A stretch of 64,000 nucleotides of DNA from Paracamarosporium sp. OC-R06-R3 (Eukaryota > Ascomycota > Dothideomycetes > Pleosporales > Didymosphaeriaceae): NCBI GenBank assembly GCA_019828545.1, contig JACVRA010000128.1, positions 310,001 to 374,000 of the forward strand, given 5' to 3'. The position numbers were made by a program, and so were the translations under genes. Below the pieces are notes generated by a model. It was given only the letters and a program-made list of their open reading frames with translations. It had not been told where the DNA came from and made no database searches. Below, piece by piece: positions 5,415 to 50,051 of the stretch; position 1 is the stretch's first letter, and each line of letters begins with the position of its first letter.

Positions 5415-6073
5415 TGATGTACGGGGTTGGTTACTTGTGCATATTCGCTTTGCATACGCATTATATACCCTGTTCTTGTGTCTTATCTTCGACGCATTAG
5501 ATACCCGTCCCTTCTATGCGTCTGATTTCTGCCATTACTACATACCCCCGATTCATCCGACCCAACCCTACATAATCTTAATCTTTATTGATGTCTCGAT
5601 ACTTGCGAGAAAACATCTATCTGTCCTTTGAAATATGACCTAGAAGTGGACTGTGTACTTGCCATTACTTTATTAGAGCTAATTTAGAAGGAGTTAGTGA
5701 AGATGTAGGTTGAGGGTTCAGACTGGTGGCACGATAACGATCCAGGCTGCTTCTTCAAGGGTCGTCAGACGGGTGAAGACGGTGGGACGGAACAGAGCCC
5801 GATAGGCTGAAGGCTATGCAGGGCAACTGTGACCAGTAGGAGATATGTATGACTACGGGTGATATAGTCTTTAGGTTTCGGCATCATCCGCGCCACAAGC
5901 GGCACGCGATTCTCACCCAAGTCAACAATCTCACACATATGCATGATAAATGGCAAAATTTGGAGTTCAATCATATCAATTGGTTCTTGTAAAACACGCT
6001 AGAAATACCCCGTCCGACTCCATGTAGAACTAGTAGGAAATACACGTGGGAATCATGCAGCAAGGAAGAACAT
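5415..6073. other. Convergent 3' intergenic region
   Basis: Lies between the 3' ends of the small membrane-protein gene and the formate dehydrogenase gene, so it should hold two 3' UTRs and terminators. AT-richer than its flanks. No gene seen. Confidence 0.6.
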
Positions 6074-7550: not shown

Positions 7551-7627
7551 TGTGCGTGTCTAAAGAAGCTGGAAGCTAATGGAGGGTATCCAGGTGGTTT
7601 ATGTAGCAAGAGACACGGTACGTGATC

Positions 7628-7684
7628 CTGACGCAACCGGGGTTAGCGGGCACTCGCGCATGGCGTCCGGGGTTGTAGACATAC
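7628..7684 (-). other. Probable 5' UTR intron of formate dehydrogenase
   Basis: On the minus strand a 57-nt stretch starts GTATGT (7684), contains GCTAAC and ends GTCAG (7628), all between the TATA box and the start codon. It holds an upstream ATG that splicing would remove from the leader. Inferred from consensus sites only. Confidence 0.5.
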
Positions 7685-7778
7685 CTCTTGCAGTAGTTCG
7701 TGACGTAAAGCTGGGAGTGAAGCTTATTGAGTGCTGAGGAGTTGGGGTGGGTGTAGAAGGACGTCCGGACAAGAGGGG

Positions 7779-7786
7779 TTTATATA
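7779..7786 (-). promoter_or_regulatory. TATA box of formate dehydrogenase
   Basis: TATATAAA on the minus strand about 230 nt before the start codon. With the 57-nt leader intron removed, the transcript leader would be of ordinary length. Confidence 0.55.
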
Positions 7787-9888
7787 CCCTTCGCAGCAAC
7801 AGATCCCACTTGTACACATTGCCTCGCGCCCCGTATCTGGTCATTTGTCTTTGTTACTGCTTAGCTTCCCCACTCGAGCATGCAGCGCCGCCTGGCAAAC
7901 GAGCGGCCCAACGCCGCTGCGGGCATTGCGGTCGTCTTGGGAAATGGCTCTGATGGCACATGGTGCGGGGTCGCAGCGAATGGTGCTACGCGTCGGCGGG
8001 ACGCGATTGACGAGCAGCCCGCCCTGAATACCCGCTTAATTCGAAGCTTAACCACGCAGTTGCATCGATAGTGCCTGTTCCTGAGCGGTGCGTGTGAGAG
8101 CTCCTCGGCGCCTAGTTGTGACGCCGACACCGCATCCTGGTCGAGGAGCTGCTTTCCGAGCGGCGTTCCGAGTGAAGCCCTGCGCGGAACGCCCGTTCAT
8201 CGCCCGCCTCCTGTTGCTCTCTACATGCCGTGAGTCGATCAATCGTGCAAGGTTGCCTACATCTCGAGAGTTGTGCCGTGGCTTCATCCGGGACAAGTTA
8301 CCCCATCTGGGAAGAGAGCGCGATGGCGGAGCGGACCATCACCAACTACGCGACGAGAGGTGGGCTGGCCTAGAACGGCCAGAGGCGGGATTCGACAGCA
8401 GCAACACGCGGGTGTGGTTCGTGGCGGAGCGCGCAAGCGGATCAGCGTCGCCAGCGCGCGGGTGCGATGTTTCTCCATGCAAGCGCCGTCGAAACTCGGT
8501 CGTGGCGCGGTCGTGACGCGGGGTTGCCGCTGGAAGCCTGGGCGACGCTCGGTGGAGCCACGGGATCTTCGGTGATAACGTCGGATCAAGATCGGAGAGC
8601 CGGGAGATGGCTCGGTGTACCGCTCAAGTCTCGCCGAGATCTCCTCATACTCTCGGTCTACTGGCCGCACGTTCCCTGGGGCTGCAAAAGAGGGGCTTGA
8701 AGCCGGTCAGAGACGGCCAGGCGTACCGGGACCCATCCCGATGGCCTCGGCGTAGCTATGATGCAACTACCAGCTACGGTAGATGGGGGTGCAGAATCCA
8801 AGCGATCGACATCTGTAGAATCCCAGGCCATGTTTGCCGTCCGAAGTCGCAGCCACTAGTTTGAGTACCACCACGTCCCGACGTGCTCAGCCATTGCCAT
8901 TTCTGGGCAACGAGGCCATCAACAGTGACTTGTTTTTCATTGCAAGTCAACTTTGTTCCTTATCTCATATCCACGGTTTTCCTCTCCGAAGCATATCGTG
9001 TCGTCCAAGATGATGCGCCGTGTTGTCGGGCTATTTTACTCAGGGCTTGTACTGAGCGGTCAAGCAAGAGCAAGAGCAAGAGCAAGAGCATGAGCATGAG
9101 CATGAGCATGAGCATAAGCATTTATATTTGCAAATTGATTCATCAGGCTTATTTACTACATCTGCTACACCAGCATCACTTTCGCAGAGGTAGATTGACC
9201 AAAATCTTCAATGTTTCGACCGTTTATCGCTCACGAATTCCATCTCATTCTCCACGTGGCTGAACCTTTACTTCCTGGAAAACCGGTTCTCTTCGAAACA
9301 AATTCTTGTTCTGTCAAAATCATCCTACAGGCAAAAACACTGATTTTTCACGAACAAAGATCAAATCGTAGCTTACATTATCTTTCCAGGTCAATGGCCC
9401 ACCAAATCATGATCCAACCCATACTGATACGGATGTTTTGCAATTATGATAAACAAAATCCGTCTTAAATTGCTTCTACAAAACTCCTGATGCTGCAGCT
9501 GGTATTGCCTAGCGTTTTGTCCCGCGAAAGACAGCTTCTCTTGGTCTGTCGAGGAACCTCAATATAAACCGTTCACTACTCGGCTCTAAATTGCTCTCGA
9601 AATGCGAAAAATCATTCAGGATCACGGGGATTCGAACGCACAGAACCTCTCCCAGAGAATCGGCCACTTGTCAAAAGTCCCGAATGCTGCCGCCAGCGCT
9701 GCTACGACTTGTGTCCAAAACAATCATTTATGCGGACTAATTTGGCCATGCACTTCGGGACTGACTCTCTTCACTAAAACATATATCGATGGTATGCGCA
9801 GATATCACAAATACATGACATCACAAGATTTGTATTTGATTACACTTATTGAGAATACTACAAACACCCGGCATGGTTTACCAGATAT
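7787..9888. other. Gene-poor region before the oxidative cluster
   Basis: About 2.1 kb with no gene I can support. The first kilobase is GC-rich and has overlapping open frames on both strands (for example 8088-8516 and 8284-8670) whose translations are Arg-rich and featureless. From about 8900 it turns AT-rich, holds the hexamer repeat at 9061-9120 and a tRNA-like fragment near 9617-9680, and then runs into the 3' end of the first BVMO gene. Confidence 0.6.
9061..9120 (+). repeat. Hexanucleotide microsatellite AGCAAG / AGCATG
   Basis: About four AGCAAG units followed directly by four AGCATG units and one AGCATA. The two phases differ at one position, so a single array probably diverged in its second half. 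It lies outside any supported gene. Confidence 0.9.
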
Positions 9889-11721
9889 CTACCTAACAAG
9901 CAACAAATCCGAATACTCCCTAGCCTTAACATCATCACACCTCTTCCTATACCCCGGCGCCGACCCATTATACCGAGCAATACTCCGCTTCTGCTTTCCC
10001 GCAACATTCTTATTCACGCCCGTCATCCAACTATCAACCTCGTTCGCCAGCAAACCTTCCGCAGTCTCATGCACATGCTGTGTCCACGCCTTGACCCCTT
10101 CCTCTGTCGCCTCTGCTCTAACAACCCCAGTCTTAACAGCGTATTCGATAAAGTCAGCAATCCAACCCACAGCATACTCAATCGACCGCGGGATATTGCC
10201 GAACATCTGATGCGGGCCCATGACCATGAACATATTAGGAAAGCCGTGGACCGTGAGTCCAAGGTACGTGCGAATCCCCTCGCTCCACTCATCTTTCAGC
10301 TTGTGGCCGCCGACCCCGCGGATATCAACAGCGTTGAACGAGCCTGTCACAGCGTCGAATCCGGTCGCGTAGATCATGACATCAAACTCCATATTCTCGT
10401 CCTTAGTCTTAACGCCTTTCTCGTGGATGTACTCGATGGGATTCTCATGCAAATCAACAAGCCTAACATTAGGCTGATTAAAAGCCTCATAATACCCGCC
10501 TTCGAGCGGTACCCTCCTCGTACCAAAGCCATGATTCTTCGGAATCAGCTTCTCAGCTATAACCGGATCGTCGACACGCTGACGAATCTTATCTGCTACG
10601 AACTTCGAGAAAAGCCCGTTAGCCTGCCTGTTAATTCCGGTATCATAAAAGTTCGCCAGCCATTTTGAGAAGCCGGGTTTTGCGTAGATGTCTTCCCAGT
10701 GTGCTTCGCGCTCTTCTGGAGTGAGATCCAGGGTTGATCGCGGGTCGCTTTTGTGGATGAAGCAGGAGTAGGAGTCGAGGCAGGCGCGGAAGATTTCTGG
10801 GTACCGCTTGCGGATGTCGGACATTTCTTGTTTGCTGATTGGCGTGTTTCGGAGGGGTGCTGTCCAGTTGGGTGTTCGTTGGAAGACGGTTAGGCTTCCG
10901 GCGGTTTTCTTGATTTCTTGGATGATTTGGATTGCTGTTGCGCCTGTACCGATTATGCCGACTCGTTTGCCATCTGGGTGGTGGGGTTTGAGTTAGTGAT
11001 GTTATCCACAGGATAGTTTGAAGCACTTGTGGGTGATGTCGAGGATGGGGACAGCGGCAGGCAATAATTACACATTAAAGAACACTAAAACCGTATTTTG
11101 AAAGACTTACCGATGATAGAATGGTCATCCGGCCACCTCGCCGTGTGAAAGGCTGCTCCTTTAAAGTCATTGACACCCGGGATATTGGGTAGCGTGGGTC
11201 GATTCAGGATACCCATTGCGGATATTAAGAAACGGCAAGTGTACGTTTGCTCGTTCTCATCCCTGAGTAACCACGAATTTGAATCCTCGCGATACTTTGC
11301 AGATGCGACTCTTGTGTTGAACTGCATATCTCGCCTCAAGTCAAACTTCTCCGCGAAGTACTGGCAGTATCTTAGAGTCTCCGGTTGACTGGAAAAGTGT
11401 TCTGACCAGTCCCACTCATCGAGAAGGGACTGGTCGAAAGAAAATATGTATGAATAAGACTCTGAGTCAAATCGTGCTCCGGGATATGTATTCCTGCGCT
11501 ATCGTTAGTTCTCTATAGTATCAATCATACGTATAGTTCTTATACCAAAACCACGTTCCACCTTCGCCCGATCCAGCTTCAAGCACTCTTGTCTTCAGAC
11601 CGAGTTGGTTCATACGATGCAGTGAATACATCCCGCTTTGTCCTGCGCCAACAATGAGTACATCGTAATCGAGTGACGCGTCAAGCGTAGCCGGAGCGGT
11701 ATCGTGGTCTTTAGCGATCAT
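9889..11721 (-). CDS. Flavin-containing Baeyer-Villiger monooxygenase, first copy (547 aa)
   Basis: Predicted type I BVMO: uses FAD, NADPH and O2 to insert oxygen next to a ketone, giving an ester or lactone. Exons are 11546-11721, 11111-11493 and 9889-10973. The first intron (52 nt, donor GTATAA at 11545) joins GGTWFW to NTYPGARFDSESYSY, the family consensus. Visible motifs: FAD-binding VGAGQSG at 24-30, the BVMO fingerprint FKGAAFHTARWP at about 168-179, and a second dinucleotide fold IIGTGATAIQ near 190-200. Near the C-terminus DVMIYATGFDAVTG is the usual ATG motif. It has neither the long N-terminal extension of the second BVMO at 19070 nor a peroxisomal tail. Substrate cannot be read; cyclohexanone-, steroid- or acetophenone-type enzymes all share this pattern. 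Neighbours point to a catabolic cluster. Confidence 0.93.
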
Positions 11722-12140
11722 GTTGGTGAGATGTTACATTCGAATGTACAAGACGACAATGTATCAAGTTTCTATCGAAGTTAAGTTCAGTGTATCTTAT
11801 CTGAGTATCAGAACGTTACCGCCCCACTGTGTTAGCAGCACTCAGTCGTAGTCCAAACAATCCGCACGGCCCGCATCGAGGACGACAGACTCGCATTAGT
11901 GGAGACGACATAATGCGGGGGATTCGGCTTTTCGGTAAGTCGTGTTTGGTTAACCGCCCCGCGGGGGAGATAGTGCCGACTTCTCCGCTGGTTACACGAA
12001 TGTAAGCTCAGCTACCAGTCACATGCGCAGGGCAGTATGGAAATGGCAACGAAGAGTACTGATATAATTCTTACAGTTCCCTATTTTAATAAATTTAGAA
12101 CTCGATTACGAAGGACGATATACTGTCCAATATATTAAAT
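11722..12140. other. Upstream region of the first BVMO
   Basis: Lies between the BVMO start codon and the stop of the MBL hydrolase; both genes point left, so this holds the BVMO promoter. It contains TGGTTAACCG at 11947-11956, which differs by one base from the palindrome at 13623. Confidence 0.6.
11947..11956. promoter_or_regulatory. Candidate Zn2Cys6 site, near-palindrome TGGTTAACCG
   Basis: Matches CGG-N4-CCG except for T at the first base, about 230 nt upstream of the first BVMO. Inverted CGG triplets are the known target type of Zn2Cys6 proteins. Assignment to the cluster regulator is inference. Confidence 0.35.
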
Positions 12141-13283
12141 CTACACGATACCCTGCTCTTTCCAGTATGGCTCAAGATCACGGAAGAATCTCCACTTGAG
12201 TGATTTGCCCCATCCTCTATCCTTCCAATCGTTCAGTGATTTGGGAAAATGATCCACCTCGTCTCTAACCGTAGAATCATGTGCAATGATGACAAATATA
12301 TTTTCGTCACAGTCTAGCTCTTGGAGCCAGCCTGAGGTTTTCTGAGCCAAGGGAACGTCATGCCCAAAAGTCATGTCATATAAAGTGTCTGTTGGGCATC
12401 TGCCTCTTGCTTTTTGGAGGTCATCAAATGCGCTCCCAGGACAGAAGGGAGCACCAGGTGCATGGCTCGCGCATGGATTCGGTTCAATTGTGTCCGGTAC
12501 AGGCAAATACTTCGATGGTCTGAATATACCAGGATAATGACATATATCACCACCGAGTAACACGAACGTGTCTGGGTGTGTGGTCGTCCGTGCCAGCCCG
12601 CACAAATGCCCAATCGCATGTCCAGGACTATCGAGCAGAAAGAAACTCCCGTCACCAAAGTAATCGAACGCAGGGAATTTGCCAATCTTTAGATCTCCGT
12701 CGAATGTAATCTCACGAAGATGGCGTTCGGCATAGTCGCTCTCTCGGATTGGTGAGTCTGGGTTCGTAGGATATCCGGGCAGCATGGCGTCTTTGAAGCC
12801 TTGGCCAACGACCAAATCCACTTTGCTCGGGAAACTCGACGGGTCTCCGATATGATCCCAGTGCCAGTGACTCCATATTACCGACTCTATTGCTTCGCCG
12901 CGTATCCCGTTTTCTTCGAGAATATCGATGACGTTCTTTTCGACGTCAATTTTGTATTTCGTTGTGGGGAGATAGTCTGCAATCGCTTTTGAGTAGTTTT
13001 GATAGTCTTTCCTAATGCCGAGATCCCATACTAGCTTCTTCCCAGATGGGTGTTCGATCAGAAAAGAATGTGAAGGTGATGTTTTGAATGTTTCCAAGCC
13101 GGGGACTGGCGGGGCCATGAAACGCTGGATCTGCGCGGGTCCAAAGTTGACTGCGTTTATTAGGCTGACTTTGACGGTCGTTGAACCTGCTGGAATCGAA
13201 ATCTGCGGTGTCGTAGCCATGTCGCTTCTTGAGGCACTATCTGAGAGAGTGTTGGTATGCTCCAGTAGACGTTTACTGGACAA
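12141..13283 (-). CDS. Metallo-beta-lactamase-fold hydrolase, lactonase-like
   Basis: Intronless, 380 residues from the first ATG; a second ATG 63 nt downstream (at 13220) would give 359. The di-zinc site is complete by eye: SHWHWDH at 138-144, DSPGHAIGH around 219-226, GGD with Asp at about 246, and a C-terminal IIAHDS. HxHxDH with a later His, Asp and His is the pattern of AiiA-type N-acyl-homoserine lactonases and other MBL-fold lactonases and esterases. No signal peptide, so probably cytosolic. Next to two BVMOs, the simplest role is opening the lactone or ester they make; this is inference from context. It shares a divergent promoter with the MFS gene at 14014. Confidence 0.85.
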   Translation of the reverse strand: MSSKRLLEHTNTLSDSASRSDMATTPQISIPAGSTTVKVSLINAVNFGPAQIQRFMAPPVPGLETFKTSPSHSFLIEHPSGKKLVWDLGIRKDYQNYSKAIADYLPTTKYKIDVEKNVIDILEENGIRGEAIESVIWSHWHWDHIGDPSSFPSKVDLVVGQGFKDAMLPGYPTNPDSPIRESDYAERHLREITFDGDLKIGKFPAFDYFGDGSFFLLDSPGHAIGHLCGLARTTTHPDTFVLLGGDICHYPGIFRPSKYLPVPDTIEPNPCASHAPGAPFCPGSAFDDLQKARGRCPTDTLYDMTFGHDVPLAQKTSGWLQELDCDENIFVIIAHDSTVRDEVDHFPKSLNDWKDRGWGKSLKWRFFRDLEPYWKEQGIV

Positions 13284-13358
13284 TTGTTGATGATTACGGT
13301 GGTTACCGAGTCATCTGAAAGGCTTTCAAGATACGAACACTACTGAAGGTGGTGGAAG

Positions 13359-13376
13359 CTTACGTGCGCACGTAAG
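13359..13376. promoter_or_regulatory. 18-bp perfect palindrome CTTACGTGCGCACGTAAG
   Basis: Perfect inverted repeat, 9 bp per arm with no spacer, about 75 nt upstream of the MBL hydrolase start. A symmetric protein-binding site is the natural reading. It contains two ACGT cores as seen in bZIP targets, but no regulator is identified. Confidence 0.5.
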
Positions 13377-13621
13377 AGAACCTCATGGGAATAGGTTACT
13401 CCCCTAGGGAAAGGGAAGGTTTAGCCGAAAACCCTCTGAACCGACCCCGCGCGTATCCGCTTCAGCCATCGGCCATTACGACGCGACGGCCGCTCCCATC
13501 GCACATCTTCTTCGGACAAAACAACAGAAACAGAGGATAATGTCGTACCTTAGCTCTCCCGATCGAGTAAAAGGGGAGGCACCTGGCTTCCAGCGGCTAC
13601 GTACTGAGATCTTGGCGATCC

Positions 13622-13633
13622 TCGGTTAACCGA
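13622..13633. promoter_or_regulatory. Candidate Zn2Cys6 operator TCGGTTAACCGA
   Basis: A 12-bp perfect palindrome with CGG and CCG separated by TTAA, in the divergent MBL/MFS promoter. The closest relatives in the window are at 13823 and 11947. Confidence 0.5.
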
Positions 13634-13822
13634 ATTGAGGCTGCCGAGCTCAAGACTCCAAGCTTGTTCTCCGCGTTTCGAAGTCGTGACAAGTAGGAGC
13701 TATCGGCTGCCTACGGAAGAGTTATTCCGTGGCTAGGAGCTCTGGATCATGATCGCTCTCGCTGGATTGGGTTGTGCGACTCTACCCCGGACTCCAGCCC
13801 CCGCGTTTACTTCCCCAGATTA

Positions 13823-13832
13823 CGGATAACCG
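13823..13832. promoter_or_regulatory. Candidate Zn2Cys6 operator CGGATAACCG
   Basis: CGG-N4-CCG, one base away from the site at 13623 and about 180 nt before the MFS start codon. Confidence 0.4.
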
Positions 13833-14013
13833 AAATAGTCGACTCGGTGATGCCGGCGACATTGCTGGGAAGACTGTCGTATTCATGCGGGCGTTCCGGT
13901 TCCATGGCCCTGTGAACAGATGTGGCGCTAGAAGCCCCTTTTGAGATCTTTCACATATTGAGCATCCATAATTCCCACTTTCAAGGTTTCGTCTTCGTGA
14001 TCAATACTCAAAA

Positions 14014-15830
14014 ATGGAGAAACCTTCCGATATGGAGCCAGAACGGATCTCAAATCACGATATCGAGATTGGAAACAAGCTCGACCTTGTCGACACCGTC
14101 CATCAAGATGAGGCCATGAAGGTGCTGAATGCCTACCATGGCGAGGAGACTTGGACAGAGCAAGAAGAAAAAGCTTTGAGACGCAAGATCGACTGGAGGC
14201 TTATGCCAGTGTTGTGTGCTACATACAGTCTTCAATACTATGATAAAGCAATGTTGGGACAGGCGGTATGTCTTCATGTCCTTGTATAAAACTGCTCTGA
14301 CTAGTTAGGCTCTCTTTGGTTTACGAACGGACCTAAATTTGACTGGCAATCGGTATTCCTTTGCAGCAGCCATTTTCTATTTAGGTTTTGTCGTTGGTGC
14401 GTATCCAGCGATGATGCTCGTTCAAAGATTTCCGATCGAGCGTGTAGCCTCAGCCGTTGTAACAGTGTGGGGCATTTGCCTGATACTTACTGTGGTTTGC
14501 AACAATTTCCAGGGACTGTATGCACAGCGATTCTTCCTCGGAGCACTTGAGAGTGGCATCAGCCCCATGTTCATGGTTATTGTAGGAAGCTTTTACAAAA
14601 AGGATGAACAAGCATTCCGCATGGGGTAAGAATTCTGAACGCTTATCGAAGACAGAGCTGACAGCACGAAGTATATGGTACTGTTGCACAGGATATGTCT
14701 CCATTTTCTCTCCACTCATCAACTATGGACTCGGCCAAGCGGGAGGCCCTCTGTCTCCCTGGAAGTACATGTACTTGTTCTCGGGTAGCCTCACGATAGT
14801 CTGGGGGATTGCGTTGTTCTGGATACTCCCACCCGATCCTGTCCGTGCCAAGGGATTTTCAGAGCGCCAGCGTTACATTTCAGTTGCCCGTCTCCGAAGC
14901 AACAATTCTGGGGTACGAAACACACACTTGAAGATTGATCAAATCCAAGAGTTGCTGCTCGATCTGAAATTCTGGCTGCTTTTCTCAGTCTCATTTCTTA
15001 GCATGATCGCCAATGGTCCCATAAGTACGTTTATTCCGATCATAATCAACTCATTCGGATTCAGCACACTGAACTCTCTGCTACTTCTTATGCCAGCTGG
15101 AGCCTACGGAGGGACCATACAACTTCTTGTTCCATACCTGTGCTACAAGTACACAAATATGCGATCAATCAGCATATTCTTGTGCCAGATGGGCACTACA
15201 CTTGCTTCATTTTTACTCTGGCTTCTTCCCCGACACGAAACCGGGGCTCTATTGTTCGCGTGTTATATCTTGCCATCAGTCGGTGGCGGCTATGCAGTGC
15301 TCATGGGACTGCAGCTCGCCAACACGGCCGGGTACACGAAGCGTACCGTAGTGTCCTCGGGTATATACATCGGCTACTGTTTTGGTAAGTCTTCCGCTTC
15401 TAGAGATCCAGACTCTGGAGGATGATAGTGTTCAACTGGAACTTCTCAGACCTCCTTTCAACAGCATTATTTCTAGATATTTTAATGTCTAAAAACATCG
15501 TGCCAGAAGTTCCTGTACGCACCCATTAACTTGGTCTTTCAGGTAATTTCGTCGGTCCATTAATATTCACGGAGAAAGACGCTCCCCGTTACACTAGAGG
15601 TTTCATCGCCGTCACAGTCACAGCGATTGCGGCAGGCATTCTGGCTCTAGTTTATCGTGGGCTCTGCATGTGGATCAATCGACGGAGAGATAAAGCTGGC
15701 ATTCCAGAGGGGTACGAACATGCTTATGACGATGACCGTACTGATATAAAGGTAAGAATTCTCACTTCTCAAAGGTAGAGACCTTGGTATTGATACATTT
15801 AAGAATCCTCAATTCCGCTACATCCTGTAG
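14014..15830 (+). CDS. MFS transporter, allantoate permease (Dal5) family
   Basis: Predicted plasma-membrane proton symporter for an organic anion. Five exons, 14014-14265, 14309-14625, 14672-15384, 15543-15751 and 15804-15830, give 505 residues. Family marks: RKIDWRLMPVLCATYSLQYYDKAMLGQA before and in the first membrane segment, the RFFLGALESGISPMF signature, YCCTGYVSIFSPLINYGLG, and a last exon that encodes only NPQFRYIL and a stop, resembling the C-terminus of Dal5-type carriers. Introns are 43, 46, 158 and 52 nt. About 12 hydrophobic segments are expected. Dal5 relatives take up allantoate, nicotinate, phthalate-like and other carboxylates, so the substrate is open. Its placement between BVMO, hydrolase and activator genes suggests uptake of the cluster's substrate. 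Confidence 0.92.
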
Positions 15831-16426
15831 AAATGACTGGATGCACTGATCCAGATAATTGAGAAGTTGAGATACGCAGAAATAGGGTATATTGGCAGCT
15901 ATGTGTGAGGAAAATCTGTCTATAAGATTTTCAGTTCATTTTGAAATATCACGGCTTGAGTAGTTATTCACTATCACATCTCGAAGTCCGATTCATGATT
16001 GAGTGACTCTCCATAAGTGAAATTATAGACTGGAAGTTTCGAATTCAGAGCATTCTTTGTCTGCAGTCAGATCAAAACCATAACCATATGAACCTCACAT
16101 ATACCTCAAGAGGTATAGTTTTCACGTTCTTTTCGTAGATGTTGGCCACCTTTGCTGGTGGAGAAGGGCCGAGGTGTTTGGCCGTGCGCGTGGTACGCTA
16201 GACAAGTCCGGCGCCTCGACCATGACGCTTCTCCGCACTTTCGCCCCAGCTCACATCACCAGCATTTACGTTGCAGTACCCCGGCAAAACTCATGATAAG
16301 CTATTAAATTCTCCGTCGCATCGCGCAGCTAGTCCTGGTGTCTTAATTCGTGAAAGCGTCACCACCCCGCGTTTCTGGAAGCCAACCTATACTTGGGAAC
16401 AAAGCCGACCCAAGCCGACACAAAAG
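15831..16426. other. Upstream region of the Zn2Cys6 regulator
   Basis: Nearly 600 bp between the MFS stop and the regulator start. AT-rich in its first 300 bp. An ATG at 16271 is in frame with the regulator and open, so the protein could be 52 residues longer. No CGG-N4-CCG site found here. Confidence 0.5.
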
Positions 16427-18827
16427 ATGTCAGCCGGTGAATTTGTACACTTCGACACGCACCAGCCGAAGCGGAGGCGAGCTGGGTTGGCCTGCATCGC
16501 ATGCCACCACAGAAAGGTAACTTCTACTACTTAGTTTCGTCATGAGGTTATTGATTTCTCAGAAAGGTCAAATGCGATATTCAACAACGTAGAAATCATG
16601 GAACTGAGGACTGTACAAACTGTAACAATGCTAGCCGGCCTTGTTACATTCGGCCATCAAAAAGAGAAGCAAGGCGTAAACCGCGTAGGGAGGATAATCG
16701 CACAAATCCAGGCATTATGGACCGTATGTCTGATGGAATCGACCCTCTTCTCGCCGCAAGTGAGGCATTTCAAGGTCTCCCGACTCCTGTTCCTGAGCAT
16801 AACGCCGATATAGTTGTAGGTTTCGATCACTTTCAAGAGCCTCGACGTAGTGATCAGTCTCTGTCACACCGATCCGTCTCTCCTCACCAAGTACACCATA
16901 ACCAATCTCCAGGGAGCTACACACAAGGTAGACAGAACCCTTCCCCTACGGTTCCACCTCTTCAGCATAGCGCAACCCACATTAGCGATGTGGATTCCTC
17001 TGGCTTCGTTCAAGAGGTTTATCGACCTGAAAATCTTTTGGATGCCGAAAATCAGGCCTTAGTTGCACAGCTTGAGCATCGCTACTCGTCTGTTCTCCAT
17101 CCAGATCTGGAACAGATTTTCACTGAAACCTATTTCTCGTACTGTTATCCCTGGTGTCCAGTCTTAGACCGTTTCACTTTATCAGCCGAGCTGGCCCGGT
17201 CTCCGTTACTTGCCAATGCTTTAGCCTTGGCTAGTAGTCATGTCCAGCCACCGTTGCTGCCACATGACGGCCCTGAAACTTACTATAAGCGCGCCAGAAC
17301 TATCTTTTATGAGGATCAGGAGTCGGACGAACTGACGTCACTAAAAGCAATCTGTTTGTTCTATTGGTGGGCACCGCGTGCATCTGCGAGGGCCAACCGT
17401 CATTCATCCTGGTAAGCTACATCTAGAGTCAATACACTAAAGTAATACAAAGTAACGCCTGTGCAGGTGGTGGACTTCAATCGTAATAAAACATTGCCAA
17501 CAGATGGATATCCATCGAGAGCAGTTCGCAGGTGATCCAAGCAAAGCAAAATTAGACCTAGGCTTGAAACGTCGGATATGGTGGACAGTGTTTGTAAGTT
17601 ATTAAAGGTCATTCTTACAGTCGATATGTTAGGGCTTTTATCCTTGACACAGCCCCGACATGTTTTGTCTCTTTCTGTGTTACCTGCTTCCATTAGATAT
17701 ACTTGGGCTTAATCATCTATGTCATCACGGCAACTTCTTCAAAACCCCCTGTTGACGTTCAGAACAGGCCAGAGAACGATTGACTGCGTTGTGTCAAAGC
17801 AAACCAGCTATAATCGACCCCGAAGATTGTCTTATTCAAGAACCCACTCTCGACGATTTTCCAAAAGATCCTCAAAGCCAACACCAAGGGGAAATATTTA
17901 TCTATTGGGTTCGCTTGTGCGCAATCATTGGTCGCATTGCAAAACTGCTTCTGCAGTCAAACGATAAAACCGGTCCTTTTCCTAATGAATTGCGCGAAGA
18001 ACTCGTATCTTGGGTAAATTCACTCCCAAAAGACCTTCGCTTACCTATTGAATCGCCAACAACGGCTTCTTTCGACCGCGATGTACACCAGCTACACTTG
18101 TTCTATCTCACTACAATCATAGTCCTACACTTGAGACGATCCGGAGGCCAGCTTCCGCAAGCTTTGCCACCTGCAATACTGGCTGCATCCTGTACGGCCA
18201 GGATTCTTCGCGACATACTTGCTCGTGGAAACTCGCGCTTTTTGATGGCCATCACCTGTTGGCACGTCGCAACTGCATATATTGCGCTTTTACAAGCGTG
18301 CAGGTATGTAGTTTTGGTGCAGAGTAGATATGTTTCAGCTGACTGTGTTTTTGTAATCTAGGATAGAACATTTGAAGGCGTATGCAAATGAAGATCTTAA
18401 TGTATTAGACATCACAGCCAAACAATTGCGACAAATGTGGGCATCAGGTAACATCATTGCCCAGGGAATGGAAAGGCTACGCCAAACAGATCAGCTGAAC
18501 ACCATGAACGGTCATGCTGCTGGTATAGATACCCAACCAACTGCTAGTTCAGCGATGCCTGGGAGTACTCATAGCGCTACGAATGTGGTTGATTTCGACA
18601 GTGCGGATGATTTCGACTGGATGCGATTTTTTCCTTTCGTATCAAAATCTACAAACGGGATCGCAGAAAGCCTTATCTCGAGAAGAGAACAAGGGACCGT
18701 AACGTATGGCTTTCCGTCACCCGACAACGAACTTTTTCACGGCACACTCTTAGCTCAGTATCAGGACCTACTAGACCCATTTGCTGGCTATACGATGGGC
18801 CTCTCAGATTTCGCGATAAATCCATAA
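16427..18827 (+). CDS. Zn2Cys6 fungal-specific transcription factor
   Basis: Predicted nuclear DNA-binding regulator of the surrounding cluster. Five exons, 16427-16516, 16567-17411, 17467-17593, 17768-18303 and 18362-18827, give 687 residues. The binuclear zinc cluster is complete across the first intron: Cys 23, 26, 33, 46, 49 and 56 (C-X2-C-X6-C-X12-C-X2-C-X6-C), preceded by basic PKRRR. The middle region is the usual fungal transcription factor domain: YCYPWCPVLDRFTLSAEL, KAICLFYWW, RRIWWTVFARERLTAL and a later LFYLTTIIVLHLRR. Introns are 50, 55, 174 and 58 nt. The start at 16427 was chosen because it lies close to the zinc cluster and follows aaaag; an upstream in-frame ATG exists. Such regulators bind CGG triplets, which fits the palindromes in neighbouring promoters. 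Confidence 0.92.
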
Positions 18828-19069
18828 CGCTGGTGGGAGTAGTCGGACAGCTACTATAGAACATCCAAATAAAAAAGAGTAACACAACGCACAGGCATAT
18901 CCAGTCGTGTGATTCAGATCTGTAATGTGAACCGATGTAAGCAATGCGATTCCCTTCCATTCACGGGAACCCGGTAGTGTAATAGTGATGTTGTGGAACT
19001 TAAAACAGACTAATAAATAACTATGAAGTGCTTCAATACCCTAACACTGTGTAAATGTGCCATGCTACT

Positions 19070-21084
19070 CTAGTCTTTGCCACTTTTAGCTGCAATATCT
19101 GGGCCTCTGCCTTGTGCTTCCTCTGCCACTTCTACATACCATGAGAGATCGTTATCCTCGCCCATTTCATACTCGGTAAATCCGTTCCCCATGAACCGGA
19201 ACTCGTTCGCGGTATTGTATACAATATTGAAATCTTCTCCGCGAATGTCACTCAGCAGGCGATTAAAAAGATGAGCACTACCACCAAACAACGCTGTCAC
19301 ACGTCCATCAGCGCGACCGCGCTTATACCAACTCTTACAGGCGCCCGTCCAGACCAGCGTCTTATGTATTTGATCCACATATTTCATGAACGAGTCCACT
19401 ACTGATCTCTTTGGGGTGATGTATTTGATGTCCTCGGTCGCTATCTTCTTGATCCACTTGACAAAGTAATCTCCCGTCCAGTTCAGCGATTCGACAAGAG
19501 AACCGTGACCGCCGAGGCAGTTTGGACCCATCATCATGAAGTAATTGGGGAAATCTGGCGTCATGACCGAGACATATGACTCTGGATCCTCTGCCCACTT
19601 CTCACGGAGATTGATGTTGTTCTGACCAATGAATGGGTAGCGTGGACGATGCGAGACATCGAATCCGGTTGCGCAAACAACTAAGCACCGACATTAGTAC
19701 CTTGATGCTTATGGCGCACTGGGTGTGGAAAACAAATAGCACCTACCAACATCGCACTCGAAGGTCTTCCCGTCCGCTGTGTGGACTGCATTCTCCGATA
19801 TTCTCGTAATAGCGCTGTTAGTGATATCGCAATTATCTCGCAAGAATGACTCAAGGTAACCGGGTCCAGGAGTGATTCGTCTGCAGCCAAGCTCCCACTT
19901 GGGAATCAGGATATCGCATAGCCTAGGATCATGCCCCAGCTTCTCTGCCATTTGTTCCGCGGCGGCCTTCATTGCTGATTCGTTGTTCTCGCCTCTCAAG
20001 AAGATATAGAAAGACTTATTCGTTCTCGATATGATTCCCTTACGATACCTGTGATGGTGTTCTGGGTCGCGAAACTGGTCCTTCTCTTTATCTGAGTATG
20101 CAGGGTTTGGGTCATCAACCTCGCGTCCGAGGTGTTTGGATGGCGGTGCTCGGTAGTATACCCAAGCCGGTCCACGAACAAAGTTCTGGACAGTGGTACC
20201 GGGTAGCTTCGCCATCTGAGGTACTATCTGTATGCCAGAAGATCCGTTACCGATGACAGCGATTCGTTTGTTTGAATAATCGTAGTTGTGGTCCCAACGT
20301 GCGGAATGAGTTATGTGTCCCTTGAAATCCTTGAAACCCGGGACATCAGGCCAATTTTCATGCCTTTTATCATTAGTGCTGGTAGGACCTTAGTTTCATA
20401 TAGAAAATGGACATACAGTAGCACTCCGCGACCCGATATTAGCACTTCACAGTATTCATCCCGCTGTATCCCTTGATGTTCGACTGTGACCTTCCACCGG
20501 CCCCGATCTTCCAGCCATTCGGAAGCTACCACTTTCGTATTTAGCTGCAAGTCACGGTCCAAATTCCATTTCTTGACCGTATCCTTGAAGTACTGCAAAA
20601 TTTCTGCTCCACTGGCATAGAAGCGTGTCCACTCTGGATTAGGGTCGAACGGAAATGCATAGATATGTGCTGGTACATCGCATTGTACGCCAGGATAGTC
20701 GTTAACAAACCAGGTCCCACCGACCTCAGAGCGCGCCTCGAAGATGGTGTGGTCGACTATGTCCTGCATCTCAGGATAACGATGCTGGAACTTGTGTGCT
20801 ATCAGCAGACCGGAGAAGCCGGCACCAATCGTGATCACACGAAGTTTTCGAGGCGTGTAGGCATATTGTTTGTTAAGTTCGAATGGATCAAATACTTCCT
20901 CTTTTGAAATACCAGGTCCGCCGTTAGGGCCGTTGCCATTGACTGGCGGTTTCGAAGGGGTGGTTGAAGCTTTGACCTGGGGAATTTCCCCCTCAGTTGC
21001 GGGTGCTACTACTGAATCGGCCAATTTCATGGGATATTTGTCAAAGCAGTGACCCGCAGGTGGATTGTCAACAAAGACTGTCAT
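19070..21084 (-). CDS. Flavin-containing Baeyer-Villiger monooxygenase, second copy (631 aa)
   Basis: Second type I BVMO, clearly different from the one at 9889. Exons are 20417-21084, 19747-20363 and 19070-19680, with introns of 53 and 66 nt, giving 631 residues. A low-complexity N-terminal extension of about 80 residues (NGNGPNGGPG) precedes the FAD fold IGAGFSG at 86-92. Then come GGTWFVNDYPGVQCDVPAHIY, the fingerprint FKGHITHSARWD at 236-247 (Asp in place of the more usual Pro, as in the longer BVMO group) and IGNGSSGIQIVP. VVCATGFDVS spans the second intron join. The segment before the first join reads ISGRGVLL where relatives usually have an Ala/Ser-Thr-Gly run. No peroxisomal tail. It is divergent from the SDR gene, so the two may be co-controlled. 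Confidence 0.93.
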
Positions 21085-21787
21085 GATAGATGCCAGACCA
21101 ACGACGAAGAAAAGATTAAGGTTATCTTAAGATACACCTGAGCTGAGAGTAATTGTTTGTAGCTCACGATGGTGGTCGAGCAGAATGGTATCTTTTGATG
21201 TGCGGCTATTCCCAAACAGACTTGCATGCGCCGGAGGCCAATCAGTCACATCATCACAGTAGCCCAAGTCATCATCCAGTAATGATGTGGGAACACCCGA
21301 GGCTGCCTGCTTTTCTTCGGTCCCTACAATGTCAGGCCACGCGTACAGTCGTGCACGTCTTCTGCCGGAATTCCCCCTGCTTACCTCAATACTGCCGTTC
21401 ATTGTGCCGCTTCTGTGATGTGCAAGTTGCGTGCTAAGACGGTTATCTATTTTGGGATAGCCGAACCGCCACTCATAGCCGAACGAGCCGGAAATAGGGT
21501 CACCTGGCTGTCGGAGCAGAAGAGCTGTATGGTTTCCCCGCACAGAAGCCCACAGCAGTGTCAGGCCCCCGAGCTAGGTATGCAATATTGCTGTATGCTC
21601 GGTACGAATGCCTGGAGACATGTTCGTCGTTAACAGGTGACCAAGCTTTGATCATCGTTCACGTCTAATTAAAGTCTCCAGGCTTCGAACGTCAAGGCTG
21701 CGCAATAGAATCTACTTGTCTTCTTTAATCCGAATCGTCCAACAATATTGTTCGCGTGTACAGGCTACAATAGCGTTAATCGTGAAA
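21085..21787. other. Divergent promoter, second BVMO / SDR
   Basis: About 700 bp between divergent starts. It holds an interrupted inverted repeat at 21440-21463 related to the CGGATAACCG site. No gene seen; the open frames in it are featureless. Confidence 0.55.
21440..21463. promoter_or_regulatory. Inverted repeat CGGTTATC-N8-GATAGCCG
   Basis: Two 8-bp arms with one mismatch around an 8-bp spacer. The left arm is the reverse complement of GATAACCG, the right half of the site at 13823. Candidate regulator site for the second BVMO and the SDR. Confidence 0.35.
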
Positions 21788-22814
21788 ATGCCAATTTCAC
21801 CTTACACATACAATGGCCCAATCGACCACACAACTCCTATAGACGAAGCTAAAATTAAGGGGAAATCTGTGATCATTACTGGAGGTGCCAATGGTATGGG
21901 TGAGACTTGCGTTCGACGCTTCGCCGAAGCAGGGGCATATATCACCATTGCCGACATGAACCAACGAGGTGCTACTATCGCCAAAGAACTCAACGAGAAG
22001 TATGGCGGCCAGCGCGCGATATTCGTGGAAGTTGATATACGCGACTGGGAGCAGCAAAAAAGTATGTTTGAGAAGGCGAAGCAAGCATTTGGTTATGTGG
22101 ATGTGGTCATAGCGAACGCAGGTATCTCTAGGAGCTCAGGAGACAGTCTCTGGAATCTAGATGATCCTAATGGCGAGCCCACGAAACCGAATCTCAACAT
22201 CGTAGAAGTGAACCTAAAAGGAACTTTCTACACATGGAAGCTCGCGGTACATTATTTCAGGAAGCAGGCAGAGAGCGAAGACCGTGATCGGTGTTTCATC
22301 ATTACGGGAAGCATGGTCGCATGGATCGACTCACCGGGTAATTGGGAATATACGGCAACAAAGTACGGATTGAGAGGTTTCATGCGCACAGCTAGACGAT
22401 CATCCTGGGAGCAAGGGATCCGGATTAACTATGTTGCGCCGTGCTGGATTAAGTCCGCGATCCGGACAAAAGAATACGAGCAATGGTTGATCGACCACGG
22501 CATTGAATTTGGGGAGCAAGAAGACGTCGCTAATTGTATGCTCCGAATAGCTACTGATCGTTCCATCAATGGTAAGCCACTATATAATCAGACACGCTGT
22601 CTTTGAGCCTTGCTAATCTATTGATCTAGGCAAGTCGCTTATGATTGCGCCCCGTACTGTTGCGAAGGAAGGATTTATGGACATTGACAAGGATGATTAT
22701 ACTCAAGAAGACGGTCATGGAGGATACTTCAAGAGAACGCAAGACACGCAGTTGGTTATAATTGAAGACAAGTGGTTGGATGATTATAAAGTGAGAGTAT
22801 ACAAGGATGACTGA
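21788..22814 (+). CDS. Short-chain dehydrogenase/reductase
   Basis: Classical SDR of 322 residues; predicted NAD(P)-dependent alcohol/ketone oxidoreductase in the cytosol. Exons 21788-22571 and 22630-22814; the 58-nt intron joins RSING to KSLMIAP. Rossmann motif TGGANGMG at 31-38, ADM after the second strand (acid at 56, favouring NAD), NAG at 110-112, Asn in VNLKG, catalytic Ser 175 (ITGSMVAW), Tyr 188 and Lys 192 (YTATK). The C-terminal 70 residues after the intron are charged and longer than in minimal SDRs. Relatives include 15-hydroxyprostaglandin- and cyclic-alcohol-dehydrogenase-like proteins; the exact substrate is unknown. Divergent from the second BVMO, it could make that enzyme's ketone from an alcohol, or oxidise the ring-opened hydroxy acid. 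Confidence 0.9.
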
Positions 22815-23316
22815 GGAAGTCCAACTTGCTAAGTGCTTGTAGGCTCAAGGGCGGTATAAGCTGTATATAACACGAGACATTTGCCTTCGGGAACCGCGGT
22901 CATTTTCCTGGTCTTTAGTGTCACAGTTAGTAGCTCGTGAGCTAGGTCACAAAATAAACAAGCTTTTTCGAATATCTGATTATGTTTGCTTTTGTCTTTG
23001 TTGATCTATACCTCCTATTTTTCGCTCGGGAGTAGTGTTGCACTAGGGCAGCTCATCTGCGTGAAGACGTTCGTTTGCGATTTATGGCCGACGGCTGACT
23101 ATATCCGGTTTAGTCTATCAATATCCCAATGCGGGGTTCTGTGATCCAATACCGGTCGGAACTATGCACACTAAACGTTGAGACCGGGTGACAATTCGTA
23201 AGGGGCCTCGATGAGTGAGACCGCTGTTTCATATTCGCTCGAGAAGAAGCCGCACATAAGTTGATGTAGGAGTCCGTCATAATATCACATTTTCTGGGAC
23301 TCTTTTCGAGAACAAG
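22815..23316. other. Intergenic region, SDR / alcohol dehydrogenase
   Basis: 500 bp holding the SDR 3' end and the alcohol dehydrogenase promoter. A CCGGTTTA half-site-like sequence lies at 23106-23113, but no full palindrome of the cluster type is seen. Confidence 0.5.
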
Positions 23317-24526
23317 ATGGGCTCGTTTTCAGAAACACCACCTGAAGTACCGTCAATGATGGGAGCATGGCGAAAACATAGAGGCAAGATGGAAGCAGTG
23401 GGTTCATCTCGTCTTCAAGACCCGCTCATGTACAACCCAACTGTATCGTGTCTTATGCTGATGATTGTGTAGGCGTGGGCAGAAGTACCTGTTCCCAAAA
23501 CACCACCAAGCGGGTTTCTCGTCAAGCTCCTTGCTTCTGGAGTATGTCGCTCCGACCACAATCTTCTGACCAACGAGATGCAACCGGCCTGGTTTCAAGA
23601 TCAATTTACTCTCGGTCACGAGGGCTGTGGTCGCATCGTTAAGGTTGGAGACCAAGTACCGTCTAATTCTGGCTTTGCCATCGGCGACATCATAGCATTG
23701 CTCGCAGTTCCTGGGTGCGGGAATACCGATTGTGAAGAGTGTAGCAGAGACCTCCCACAGCTGTGTGCGCGAGGCCACCACTCCGGCATAGGCCAAGATG
23801 GATTTTACGCTCCTTATGCAGCAATAGATGTTCGTGGTGTGGTTAAAGTACCTTACGGTGTTACACCCAGCCAAGCTGCTGTTGCAACGGATGCAGTTAC
23901 AACAGCTTATCACGCCATCCATCGGCGGGGAGAAATCAAGAAAAACGAAGTCGTATTTCTTTTTGGCCTGGGTGGTTTAGGATTCAACGCGCTGCAAATC
24001 ATCCGAGCAATAGGTGCAAGAGTTCTTGTGAGCGACGTAAAGCAGCAAAATCTCGACGACGCAATACATATTGGTGTGGAAGAAAGAGACATAGTACCCA
24101 TAGGGAAAGGCATTAGGGAATGGGTAGAGGAAAATGGTTGGGTCGGAAAGATCGACATCGTTGCAGATTTTGTAGGGATGAAGCAAACTTTCAGTGATGC
24201 ACAGTATATTGGTGAGTCTAAGTAGCCGACTAAGAGCAGAGTGTATTTCTCACGACTCCGTAGTAAGACAAGCCGGGAGATTGCTGTGCGTTGGGACATT
24301 GAACCACGATAATATTGTCCACATGAAGATCGGCATCAGAAAGCGAGTCACCATCATCTTCTCGTATGGAGGACAGCTACGAGATTTAGAAGAAGCTTTA
24401 GAACTAATTGCGCGCGGTATTTTGAATCCTATGGTAGCTGACGGAAAGCTAGCGGATTTTCCAACGGTGTTGCGCGATTTGGAAGCTGGCAAAGTCAAAG
24501 GAAGGATAGCTCTGTTGCACGAGTAA
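23317..24526 (+). CDS. Zinc-dependent alcohol dehydrogenase
   Basis: Medium-chain (GroES-like plus Rossmann) dehydrogenase, 360 residues. Exons 23317-23397, 23473-24211 and 24264-24526. The first intron (75 nt, donor GTGGGT) contains an in-frame stop, and removing it restores KMEAAWAEVPVPKTPPSGFLV. Catalytic zinc ligands Cys 52 (ASGVC) and His 76 (LGHEGCG). Structural zinc lobe with Cys 109, 114, 117 and 125 (PGCGNTDCEECSRDLPQLC). Nucleotide-binding GLGGLGFNALQ. Asp in VSDVK suggests NAD. Last gene of the cluster; it could supply the ketone for a BVMO, or oxidise the omega-hydroxy acid after ring opening. It resembles the second zinc alcohol dehydrogenase at 50052 in fold, but with low identity and different gene structure. 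Confidence 0.92.
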
Positions 24527-24832
24527 ATTAGTTGACTATTATATTTGCGTACTGCCTGCTATTTGTTTTCTTATGCCACAAATGTTGGCTATCCTTCGCT
24601 GTTGTGATGATCACTGGAGTGCAAATAGCTTTTGAATCTATGACGTACTTCATTCCGACTTCGCTTTGTCTCAAAATTTCGCAACATACATAAATCCTCA
24701 ATCATTTAATTCCAAAAGCATTGAATTTGTATTATATTATTGCAGCAAGAATTAGTTTTTGATTCCGTTGGATATACGGCATTGTGCAAAAACTTACGGC
24801 TCGTCGGGAGAGTCACCCTCAATTGATTGATC

Positions 24833-25504
24833 ATGTCGCAATCCACACCAACACTCGCCGGCCTCCTCGAAACTCTCCTTCCAACTGTGCACCTCACCCG
24901 ACCTCCACCGCATCCCATACATCCCTCTTTAACCCCCGCTATATCATCCCTCATTTTGCACCCCACCCTCGAAGCTACACTACATCTTCTTAATGGCGAC
25001 CTACCATCTGCACACTTCCTCGTGCGCCACATGCAAGCACCACCCGCAATCGAGGGAATGCTACTCCACTCAATTCTGCATCGATGCGAGGGCGACATGC
25101 GCAATGCGCGACTATGGGCGAGTGATGTCCTAGACGCGAATGATAGGTGGGTGCCGAAGCACAAGGGAGAAGAGCGACTTGAGTTCGAAGTAGTGCAGGA
25201 AATGAAAGGAAAGGTGACGGGTGGAGTAAGATTTGCGGAATATGTGTACGGGAAAGATGAGAGTGAGCTCGAACGCCTCATCAATGATGTTGAGAGGTTT
25301 CGGACGGATAAGGCAAGCGAAGGGGAGGTAGAGCTTGAAGAAAGGATACGGAAAGAGTTAGAGAGGATTCTGGAATGGTGCAAGAAAAAGTTTGGGGATG
25401 GCGAGTGGTTGGATGCTAGCGCGGCGTGGGTGAGACATAGCGAAGAAGTGCGGAAGAAGGGACAAGACATGGTGAGTGGAGGGAAGGGATTTAGGGATTT
25501 TTAA
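24833..25504 (+). CDS. Conserved-looking hypothetical protein
   Basis: Intronless, 223 residues from the ATG at 24833. Hydrophobic N-terminal half with a proline-rich patch (RPPPHPIHPSL), then HLLNGDLPSAHFLVRHMQAPPAIEGMLLHSILHRCEGDMRNARLWASDV, which reads like paired helices with a repeat-like spacing. The second half is strongly charged and probably coiled coil (KASEGEVELEERIRKELERILEW). No signal peptide or membrane segment. I do not recognise a family. It may or may not belong to the oxidative cluster; its promoter is short (306 bp) and shares no palindrome. Confidence 0.7.
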   Translation: MSQSTPTLAGLLETLLPTVHLTRPPPHPIHPSLTPAISSLILHPTLEATLHLLNGDLPSAHFLVRHMQAPPAIEGMLLHSILHRCEGDMRNARLWASDVLDANDRWVPKHKGEERLEFEVVQEMKGKVTGGVRFAEYVYGKDESELERLINDVERFRTDKASEGEVELEERIRKELERILEWCKKKFGDGEWLDASAAWVRHSEEVRKKGQDMVSGGKGFRDF

Positions 25505-49531: not shown

Positions 49532-50051
49532 AGCCGCATCACGGCGCATGTACATTACTCGTCCTAGACATAGACAGACTAGATCCTACCACCGCCATGT
49601 ACAAGTACACACCAACCAATACAAATAAATCTAGACCATCACCGCATTTCTTCGCAAAACTGCACCTTTCCACATACGCTATCTCGCATCTACTATCCTG
49701 CGCCTACTTCCTTCCTTTCTCCTCACCGCCAAGATTCATATCCTAGCAGGGCGAAATACGCCGCCTCGCCTCGCATACATTTTACCCCCTTTCGTGTGTA
49801 AGCTTACATCGCCCGACGACGACGACTCCACTGGCTTCCCCAATGACGTACGTAGCGCGGCACACCTCACTCCACCATATACCCGCAGCATTGACTCAAA
49901 TCGACCGCGCGAAGGATACATAAACGAAGTTTCCCTTCCCAGCTGAACGTAATGTAACGAACAACACACCGTCTACCTCCCATCTCATTCATTTCCTCTC
50001 CCTTACGTATATTCCCTTTCCTCTGCTTGCTTGCTTCCTTCCACCCCCACA
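49532..50051. other. Intergenic region upstream of the second alcohol dehydrogenase
   Basis: 520 bp with the synthetase 3' end and the dehydrogenase promoter. Pyrimidine-rich just before the start codon. No clear TATA box. Confidence 0.5.

What the first reader, a model, noticed from the sequence alone, without database searches (positions are those of the whole stretch)
9889..24526. Seven-gene cluster for oxidation of a cyclic alcohol or ketone through Baeyer-Villiger cleavage
Two BVMOs, an HxHxDH lactonase-like hydrolase, an SDR, a zinc alcohol dehydrogenase, a Dal5-type importer and a Zn2Cys6 activator lie together with no unrelated gene between them. The sequence shows each family. From known pathways such as bacterial cyclohexanol and cyclopentanol breakdown, these activities form a chain: alcohol, ketone, lactone, hydroxy acid. 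No polyketide, peptide or terpene synthase is present. I infer a fungal catabolic or detoxification cluster that opens a lactone with an MBL-fold enzyme rather than the usual alpha/beta hydrolase. I know of no described fungal cluster with this exact set.
Basis: partly seen in the sequence, partly recalled or inferred. Interest (0 to 1): 0.88.

Follow-up and report, generated by a model that had tools for sequence, protein, structure and literature searches.

The report
Fungal ketone ring-opening gene cluster
This stretch of a fungal genome holds seven intact genes that together look able to import a cyclic compound, oxidise it and cut its ring open, and the three key enzymes sit close together in many other moulds, so it is probably a widespread breakdown route that still lacks a known substrate.

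Summary
All seven genes rebuild as intact spliced models at the stated place, with their families' motifs. Among scored candidates the nearest PKS match is 174 kb away, and no NRPS or terpene-synthase match lies on the contig.

Best reading: a conserved ascomycete route from alcohol to ketone to lactone to hydroxy acid. Substrate unknown, no activity tested; conservation of SDR, importer and regulator untested. Two BVMOs in fungal terpenoid detoxification are already described (Grosmannia): a new variant, not a new kind.

The parts
9889..11721 (-). BVMO1, CHMO/PAMO/OTEMO-type Baeyer-Villiger monooxygenase, 547 aa, exons 11721-11546, 11493-11111, 10973-9889
   Evidence: best PDB match OTEMO 3uov, 521.7 bits, 235 of 523 aligned residues identical; both BVMO fingerprints
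12141..13220 (-). MBL-fold dizinc-type hydrolase, predicted lactonase, 359 aa, single exon
13221..14013 (.). shared divergent upstream region of MBL and the importer, 793 bases
   Evidence: between two divergent starts; no convincing shared regulator motif found
14014..15830 (+). MFS importer of the ACS anion type (Dal5-like by recall), 505 aa, 5 exons
   Evidence: PF07690, 134.3 bits; TIGR00893, 181.5 bits, under the cut-off of 395
16427..18827 (+). Zn2Cys6 transcription factor, 687 aa, 5 exons
   Evidence: (PF00172 21.4 bits, cut-off 21; PF04082 56.9 bits)
19070..21084 (-). BVMO2, a second BVMO of another subfamily, 636 aa, 3 exons
   Evidence: several homologues are named stcW, moxY or cyclohexanone 1,2-monooxygenase by their sources
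21085..21787 (.). shared divergent upstream region of BVMO2 and SDR, 703 bases
   Evidence: frames in it have no Pfam match
21788..22814 (+). short-chain dehydrogenase/reductase, 322 aa, 2 exons
   Evidence: (PF00106, 122.2 bits)
23317..24526 (+). zinc alcohol dehydrogenase, 360 aa, 3 exons; best solved relatives are carbonyl reductases and secondary-alcohol dehydrogenases
   Evidence: (CPCR2-type carbonyl reductase, acetophenone reductase, Rhodococcus ADH-A)

Best explanation
A conserved ascomycete catabolic (or detoxifying) cluster for ring opening by Baeyer-Villiger oxidation. The ACS-type carrier brings in the substrate, most likely an anion (inferred from carrier family). SDR and the Zn-ADH oxidise a secondary alcohol to a ketone (inferred from family). 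BVMO1 inserts oxygen next to the ketone and makes a lactone or ester (fingerprint shown, activity inferred). The MBL enzyme opens the lactone to a hydroxy acid (metal-site residues and lactonase-like predicted fold shown, activity inferred). BVMO2, from a different subfamily, makes a second Baeyer-Villiger cut, either on a second ketone of the same molecule or on the keto acid formed when a dehydrogenase oxidises the hydroxy acid (inferred). The Zn2Cys6 factor switches the set on (inferred). The core shown by conservation is MBL, BVMO1 and BVMO2.
Confidence: 0.72

Rival explanations
1. Tailoring cluster of a secondary metabolite whose backbone gene lies elsewhere: BVMO2 is moxY/stcW-like, and MBL closes a lactone, as the hydrolase half of MpaDE does in mycophenolic acid synthesis.
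For: Several BVMO2 homologues are named sterigmatocystin stcW or moxY by their sources; three of 120 listed MBL homologues are named mpaDE and two more as P450s by their sources; MpaDE is described as a P450/hydrolase (lactone synthase) fusion (passages of PMC10144355). Two other MBL relatives in this genome lie near P450 genes.
Against: Nearest scored KS 174 kb away, no NRPS condensation or terpene-synthase match on the contig; the one P450 match listed on C24 is at 277081-278097, 42 kb away, although only 92 of 353 P450 candidates were scored. An importer-type carrier and two dehydrogenases point inward and oxidative. The core is found together in species of three classes, more typical of catabolism (general knowledge).
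Confidence: 0.15
2. Detoxification of plant or microbial lactones or lactams led by MBL, like the Fusarium FDB1 cluster, with the BVMOs acting on side products.
For: MBL-fold hydrolase with transporter and Zn2Cys6 regulator, as in FDB1 (PMC4726666 Table 2, passage).
Against: FDB1 lists two amidases, a dienelactone hydrolase and a salicylate hydroxylase, and no BVMO or ADH (its only dehydrogenase-like entry is an NmrA-like gene). FVEG_05854, the likely MBL of this cluster in F. verticillioides, is in no induced group for four lactam/lactone compounds.
Confidence: 0.08
3. Two or three independent functional units that happen to sit side by side (BVMO1-MBL pair; BVMO2-SDR-ADH; importer-regulator). 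This overlaps with the other readings and is not exclusive of them.
For: SDR, importer and regulator conservation untested; the gap between BVMO2 and the BVMO1-MBL pair varies between fungi.
Against: BVMO2 lies within 13 tags of MBL in 11 of 12 serially tagged same-length pairs, and 14 contig lengths hold all three genes. A BVMO1-ADH fusion model links ADH to BVMO1.
Confidence: 0.15

Closest known systems
Grosmannia clavigera terpene-responsive cluster and the BVMOs CMQ_6956 and CMQ_7007 (Wang et al. 2014, not held; seen only through passages of PMC8120277 and PMC3680317)
   Same: Fungal cluster that responds to terpenes; two BVMOs implicated in terpenoid detoxification. My recall of the 2014 abstract adds that limonene breakdown needed both BVMOs and an epoxide hydrolase.
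   Different: The cluster is described as having 30 genes; whether its BVMOs are orthologues of BVMO1 or BVMO2, or an MBL lies there, could not be tested because the sequences did not appear in my listings.
Bacterial camphor pathway: OTEMO of Pseudomonas putida
   Same: BVMO1 is 45% identical to OTEMO over 523 residues, its best solved match; use of two BVMO steps and a dehydrogenase (pathway recalled).
   Different: Among the seven genes no P450, no CoA ligase and no two-component ketolactonase; lactone opening assigned to an MBL enzyme.
Bacterial cyclohexanol/cyclopentanol clusters (recalled)
   Same: Alcohol dehydrogenase, BVMO and lactonase in one locus.
   Different: Alpha/beta-hydrolase lactonase there, MBL-fold here; a second BVMO, an ACS-type importer and a Zn2Cys6 factor here.
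FDB1 benzoxazolinone cluster of Fusarium (passages of PMC4726666)
   Same: MBL-fold hydrolase, transporters, Zn2Cys6 factor.
   Different: No BVMO or ADH in its gene table; amidases and a dienelactone hydrolase instead.
AHL lactonases and 4-pyridoxolactonase
   Different: About 17-22% identity, larger protein (359 against about 240-277 residues); far below NCBIfam cut-offs (56.3 of 390 bits for AttM).

Membership tests
Type I Baeyer-Villiger monooxygenase (BVMO1) | two dinucleotide motifs around FxGxxxHxxxW[P/D] and [A/G]GxWxxxx[F/Y]P[G/M]xxxD (fingerprints recalled) | tested here: met
   FKGAAFHTARWP at 169, GGTWFWNTYPGARFD at 54, GAGQSG at 25, GTGATA at 195
Type I Baeyer-Villiger monooxygenase (BVMO1) | closest solved relatives are proven BVMOs along the whole length | tested here: met
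   OTEMO 521.7 bits, PAMO about 470-480, CHMO and steroid MO about 390-436
Type I Baeyer-Villiger monooxygenase (BVMO2) | same two fingerprints | tested here: met
   FKGHITHSARWD at 241, GGTWFVNDYPGVQCD at 122
Type I Baeyer-Villiger monooxygenase (both) | NADPH-dependent lactone or ester formation from a ketone | not testable with these tools
   needs purified protein
OTEMO | acts on 2-oxo-delta3-4,5,5-trimethylcyclopentenylacetyl-CoA | not testable with these tools
   best sequence match only; no CoA ligase in the seven genes
AHL-lactonase-type dizinc MBL hydrolase | HxHxDH plus third His, bridging Asp and last His | tested here: met
   H118, H120, D122, H123, H201, D225, H314 invariant in 36 sequences; the role of each by recalled analogy to AiiA; metal binding itself not tested
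AHL-lactonase-type dizinc MBL hydrolase | fold closer to lactonases than to beta-lactamases | tested here: met
AHL lactonase AttM/AiiA (named families) | NCBIfam cut-off | tested here: not met
   AttM 56.3 bits of 390, AiiA 27.3 of 375, 4-pyridoxolactonase 33.4 of 325
MpaDE | P450 domain fused to the hydrolase | tested here: not met
   single-exon 359 aa with Lactamase_B only; MpaDE described as P450 plus hydrolase
FDB1 cluster | amidase, dienelactone hydrolase and MBL together | tested here: not met
   no amidase or dienelactone hydrolase among the seven; gene list of FDB1
Grosmannia clavigera terpene cluster | orthology of its two BVMOs with BVMO1 and BVMO2 | not tested
   sequences absent from the 120-row listings
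Biosynthetic gene cluster | backbone synthase in or next to the cluster | tested here: not met
   nearest scored KS match 174 kb away on C24, no condensation or terpene-synthase (PF19086) match on C24; prenyltransferases and other backbone classes not tested

The most novel reading that the evidence does not exclude
The cluster is an import-fed ring-opening route for plant cyclopentanone carboxylates such as jasmonates and their reduced (alcohol) forms. BVMO1 resembles an enzyme that cleaves a cyclopentenone acetic acid derivative, the carrier is of an organic-anion family, and the dehydrogenases could convert the alcohol form to the ketone. It would then be a widespread ascomycete way of destroying or feeding on a plant hormone. 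The evidence does not exclude this; nothing shows it.
Probability: 0.07. Interest if true: 0.85.

Novelty: new variant of a known kind. Interest (0 to 1): 0.52.

Why it matters
The physiological substrates of BVMOs are widely unknown (abstract of PMC4498894, seen in the listing). A core of two BVMOs and one lactonase-like MBL enzyme found together in three fungal classes gives a testable native pathway, proposes a function for an uncharacterised fungal MBL group (the 120 listed hits are 58-83% identical; those with names are fungal), and supplies a candidate enzyme pair (BVMO plus matched lactonase) for ring opening. It also gives published F. verticillioides tables (FVEG_05854) a new reading.

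Tried and rejected
Promoter motif: no 9-base word shared by three or more of five upstream regions; AAATAGGG occurs in three of them and nowhere else in the window but was one of thousands of words tried, and spaced CGG/CCG pairs are not clearly enriched; inconclusive.

Bacterial relatives: one scan of genome contigs (one genome for each of 84,980 species) gave only two weak loci (L020, L021), not followed up, so bacterial context gives no help. This scan used two strict peptide patterns and can miss relatives.

Gene transfer: third-codon-position GC is 0.43-0.57 in the seven genes and 0.42-0.74 in ten other frames of the window; an eleventh frame (FDHpart) was probably taken in the wrong frame or across an intron and is not used. 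Not evidence of transfer.

Literature: 10 searches. Wang 2014 and DiGuistini 2011 on Grosmannia are not held. Papers opened were seen as passages only, none read in full. A salicylate-catabolism paper with a BVMO and SDR beside a 3-hydroxyanthranilate cluster was checked (PMC7842363, passages): different cluster, no 'lactamase' in its text. PMC4368105 and PMC12628601 (passages) and PMC5225235 (passages) gave background only. The jasmonate-BVMO search returned no paper.

Contig-length counts: two BVMO2 rows without contig data (P0294, P0326) were left out, so 118 of 120 rows were used. Tag counts were read by eye and cover only same-length pairs with serial tags in both names; left out because JGI-style numbers need not be serial: Cercospora zeae-maydis and Aspergillus spectabilis (MBL-BVMO2), Aspergillus unguis (2 apart) and Microdochium trichocladiopsis (11 apart) (BVMO1-BVMO2). 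The second structure job was not used.
Full report
What is there. The window lies in a 43 Mb assembly, contig C24, bases 310001-374000; that it is a fungus, probably of the Dothideomycetes, I infer from introns, the Zn2Cys6 factor and the best-named homologues. I rebuilt the seven genes of the finding from reading frames and splice signals. Order and strand: BVMO1 (-), MBL (-), importer (+), Zn2Cys6 factor (+), BVMO2 (-), SDR (+), Zn-ADH (+). MBL and the importer, and BVMO2 and SDR, start back to back with 793 and 703 bases between them. On the left the next frame with a Pfam match that I found is a D-2-hydroxyacid dehydrogenase family member at 5974-7290 (-), formate-dehydrogenase-like by eye; on the right are a frame without a Pfam match at 24827-25501 and then a HET-domain frame. 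Further frames tested in the left gap and in gaps of the cluster have no Pfam match.

Conservation. The protein searches listed the best 120 clusters each for MBL (of 1244 hits), BVMO1 (of 8000 scored hits) and BVMO2 (of 3993 hits). The output gives the longest contig of each cluster; equal lengths almost surely mean the same contig, since 100 shifted-length controls gave 2, 0 and 3 matches in total. Of 120 MBL clusters, 39 share a length with BVMO1, 32 with BVMO2, 57 with at least one and 63 with none; 22 lengths join BVMO1 and BVMO2; 14 lengths are in all three lists. The lists are capped, so these are lower bounds for co-location on a contig; but many contigs are long, so closeness needs other evidence. 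First, locus tags, among same-length pairs with serial tags in both names. Of 14 MBL-BVMO1 pairs, 8 differ by one (Plenodomus lindquistii, Coniothyrium glycines, Coniosporium tulheliwenetii, Helicocarpus griseus, Penicillium argentinense, P. angulare, P. cataractarum, Stylonectria norvegica), 4 by 3-7 (P. herquei, Exophiala spinifera, Neoarthrinium moseri, E. oligosperma), E. xenobiotica by 17, and Elsinoe batatas by 347. Of 12 MBL-BVMO2 pairs the difference is 2-4 in six, 7-13 in five and 136 in Elsinoe. Of 8 BVMO1-BVMO2 pairs seven differ by 2-6 and Elsinoe by 211. Against: Penicillium flavigenum has MBL and the BVMO1 homologue on contigs named c002 and c012, and in Exophiala viscosa MBL shares a contig length with BVMO2 but not with the listed BVMO1 homologue. 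Second, all five listed BVMO1-family proteins that also carry the Lactamase_B domain are annotated fusions with MBL first, as in the window (Fusarium fujikuroi twice, Diaporthe amygdali, Rhypophila decipiens, Paramyrothecium foliicola), and one from a 7.5 kb contig is a BVMO1-ADH fusion; that contig length also carries an MBL. The fusions may be annotation errors, but they need tandem genes. One looked-up species each belongs to Dothideomycetes, Eurotiomycetes and Sordariomycetes; Elsinoe batatas is a Dothideomycete too. MBL and BVMO1 distances over 40 rows correlate (r 0.651; 0 of 1000 permutations as high), which fits long joint inheritance but also plain species history.

Same chemistry elsewhere in the genome. 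The second-best MBL match in the genome (C30, 39-40% identical) stands back to back with another BVMO that is not close to either BVMO of the window (about 25-36% in its longer pieces), beside a Zn-ADH, an aldehyde dehydrogenase and an APH-type phosphotransferase. Of the other MBL relatives, C241 and C245 have a P450 gene near, and the first of two on C50 has a Zn-ADH, a fungal transcription-factor domain and a carboxymuconolactone-decarboxylase-family gene near; the second on C50 and the one on C85 were not examined. This company of oxygenases and dehydrogenases suggests hydrolysis of oxygenase products as the family's theme. It is an inference from neighbours.

Is it biosynthetic? On C24 the only KS match listed is at 508967, 174 kb past the cluster's end (79 matches in the genome); no condensation domain (43 matches) and no PF19086 terpene-synthase match (8 matches) lies on C24. 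The only P450 match listed on C24 is 42 kb away (92 of 353 candidates scored). Prenyltransferases were not searched.

Published data that touch it. In F. verticillioides the listed BVMO2 homologue, 72% identical, is FVEG_05851, and FVEG_05854 is listed among beta-lactamase-domain genes, apparently in the MBL columns of a flattened table (PMC5610705 passage). FVEG_05854 falls from 8.6 to 0.29 FPKM under 2-coumaranone (PMC10512309 Table 8, passage) and is repressed by pyrrocidine B, log2 -3.15 (PMC7377494 Table 2, passage); Table 8 lists it in no induced group for 2-benzoxazolinone, 2-oxindole, 2-coumaranone or chlorzoxazone. If it is the cluster's MBL, which I infer from numbering only, this argues against a general lactone alarm and for a more specific role. 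A search for five neighbouring FVEG tags found only those two papers, neither of which, in the passages seen, describes a cluster there.

Likely mechanism and limits. The most economical chain is import, alcohol to ketone, ketone to lactone by BVMO1, lactone to hydroxy acid by MBL, and a second Baeyer-Villiger step by BVMO2. Genes, motifs, predicted fold and the recurring neighbourhood of the three core genes are shown; every reaction is inferred. Two distinct BVMOs recall camphor breakdown in Pseudomonas (recalled) and terpenoid detoxification in Grosmannia (passages), which makes plant terpenoids the first substrate class to try; cyclic oxylipins are a bolder option.

Verdict. The claim of novelty is reduced to a new variant of a known kind: a fungal Baeyer-Villiger catabolic cluster with an MBL-fold, lactonase-like enzyme.

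Noticed in passing
L017 (G000:C30:31000-40900): about 1013-9622: A second, diverged BVMO (-) and MBL (+) pair back to back, with Zn-ADH, aldehyde dehydrogenase and an APH-type phosphotransferase; possibly a hydroxy-acid breakdown cluster.
   Followed up: partly
L022 (G000:C241) 3542-6348 and L024 (G000:C245) 19-5808: Two more MBL relatives near P450 genes (and an SDR in L024).
   Followed up: partly
L023 (G000:C50:27000-36900): MBL relative divergent from a Zn-ADH, with a fungal transcription-factor domain, a 3-hydroxyisobutyrate-dehydrogenase-type gene and a carboxymuconolactone-decarboxylase-family gene: looks like another catabolic cluster.
   Followed up: partly
window 50046-51170 (+): A second single-exon zinc ADH in the window, 36.6% identical to the cluster's ADH, next to an AMP-binding, acyl-CoA-synthetase-like frame at 47760-49370.
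   Followed up: partly
window about 10000-32000: GC of 0.442-0.496 in 2 kb steps here against 0.506-0.590 elsewhere in the window, except 0.475 in the last 2 kb; covers the cluster and the HET-domain region.
   Followed up: partly
P0146, P0166, P0186, P0226, P0235: Annotated MBL-BVMO1 fusion proteins in four genera; whether any is a true fused enzyme or all are gene-model errors is open and worth an RNA check.
   Followed up: partly
homologue listing (P0036, P0057, P0087, P0116, P0119): Five of 120 listed MBL homologues of 305-363 aa carry P450 names, three of them mpaDE, although no P450 domain is recorded for them: probably transferred annotation.
   Followed up: no
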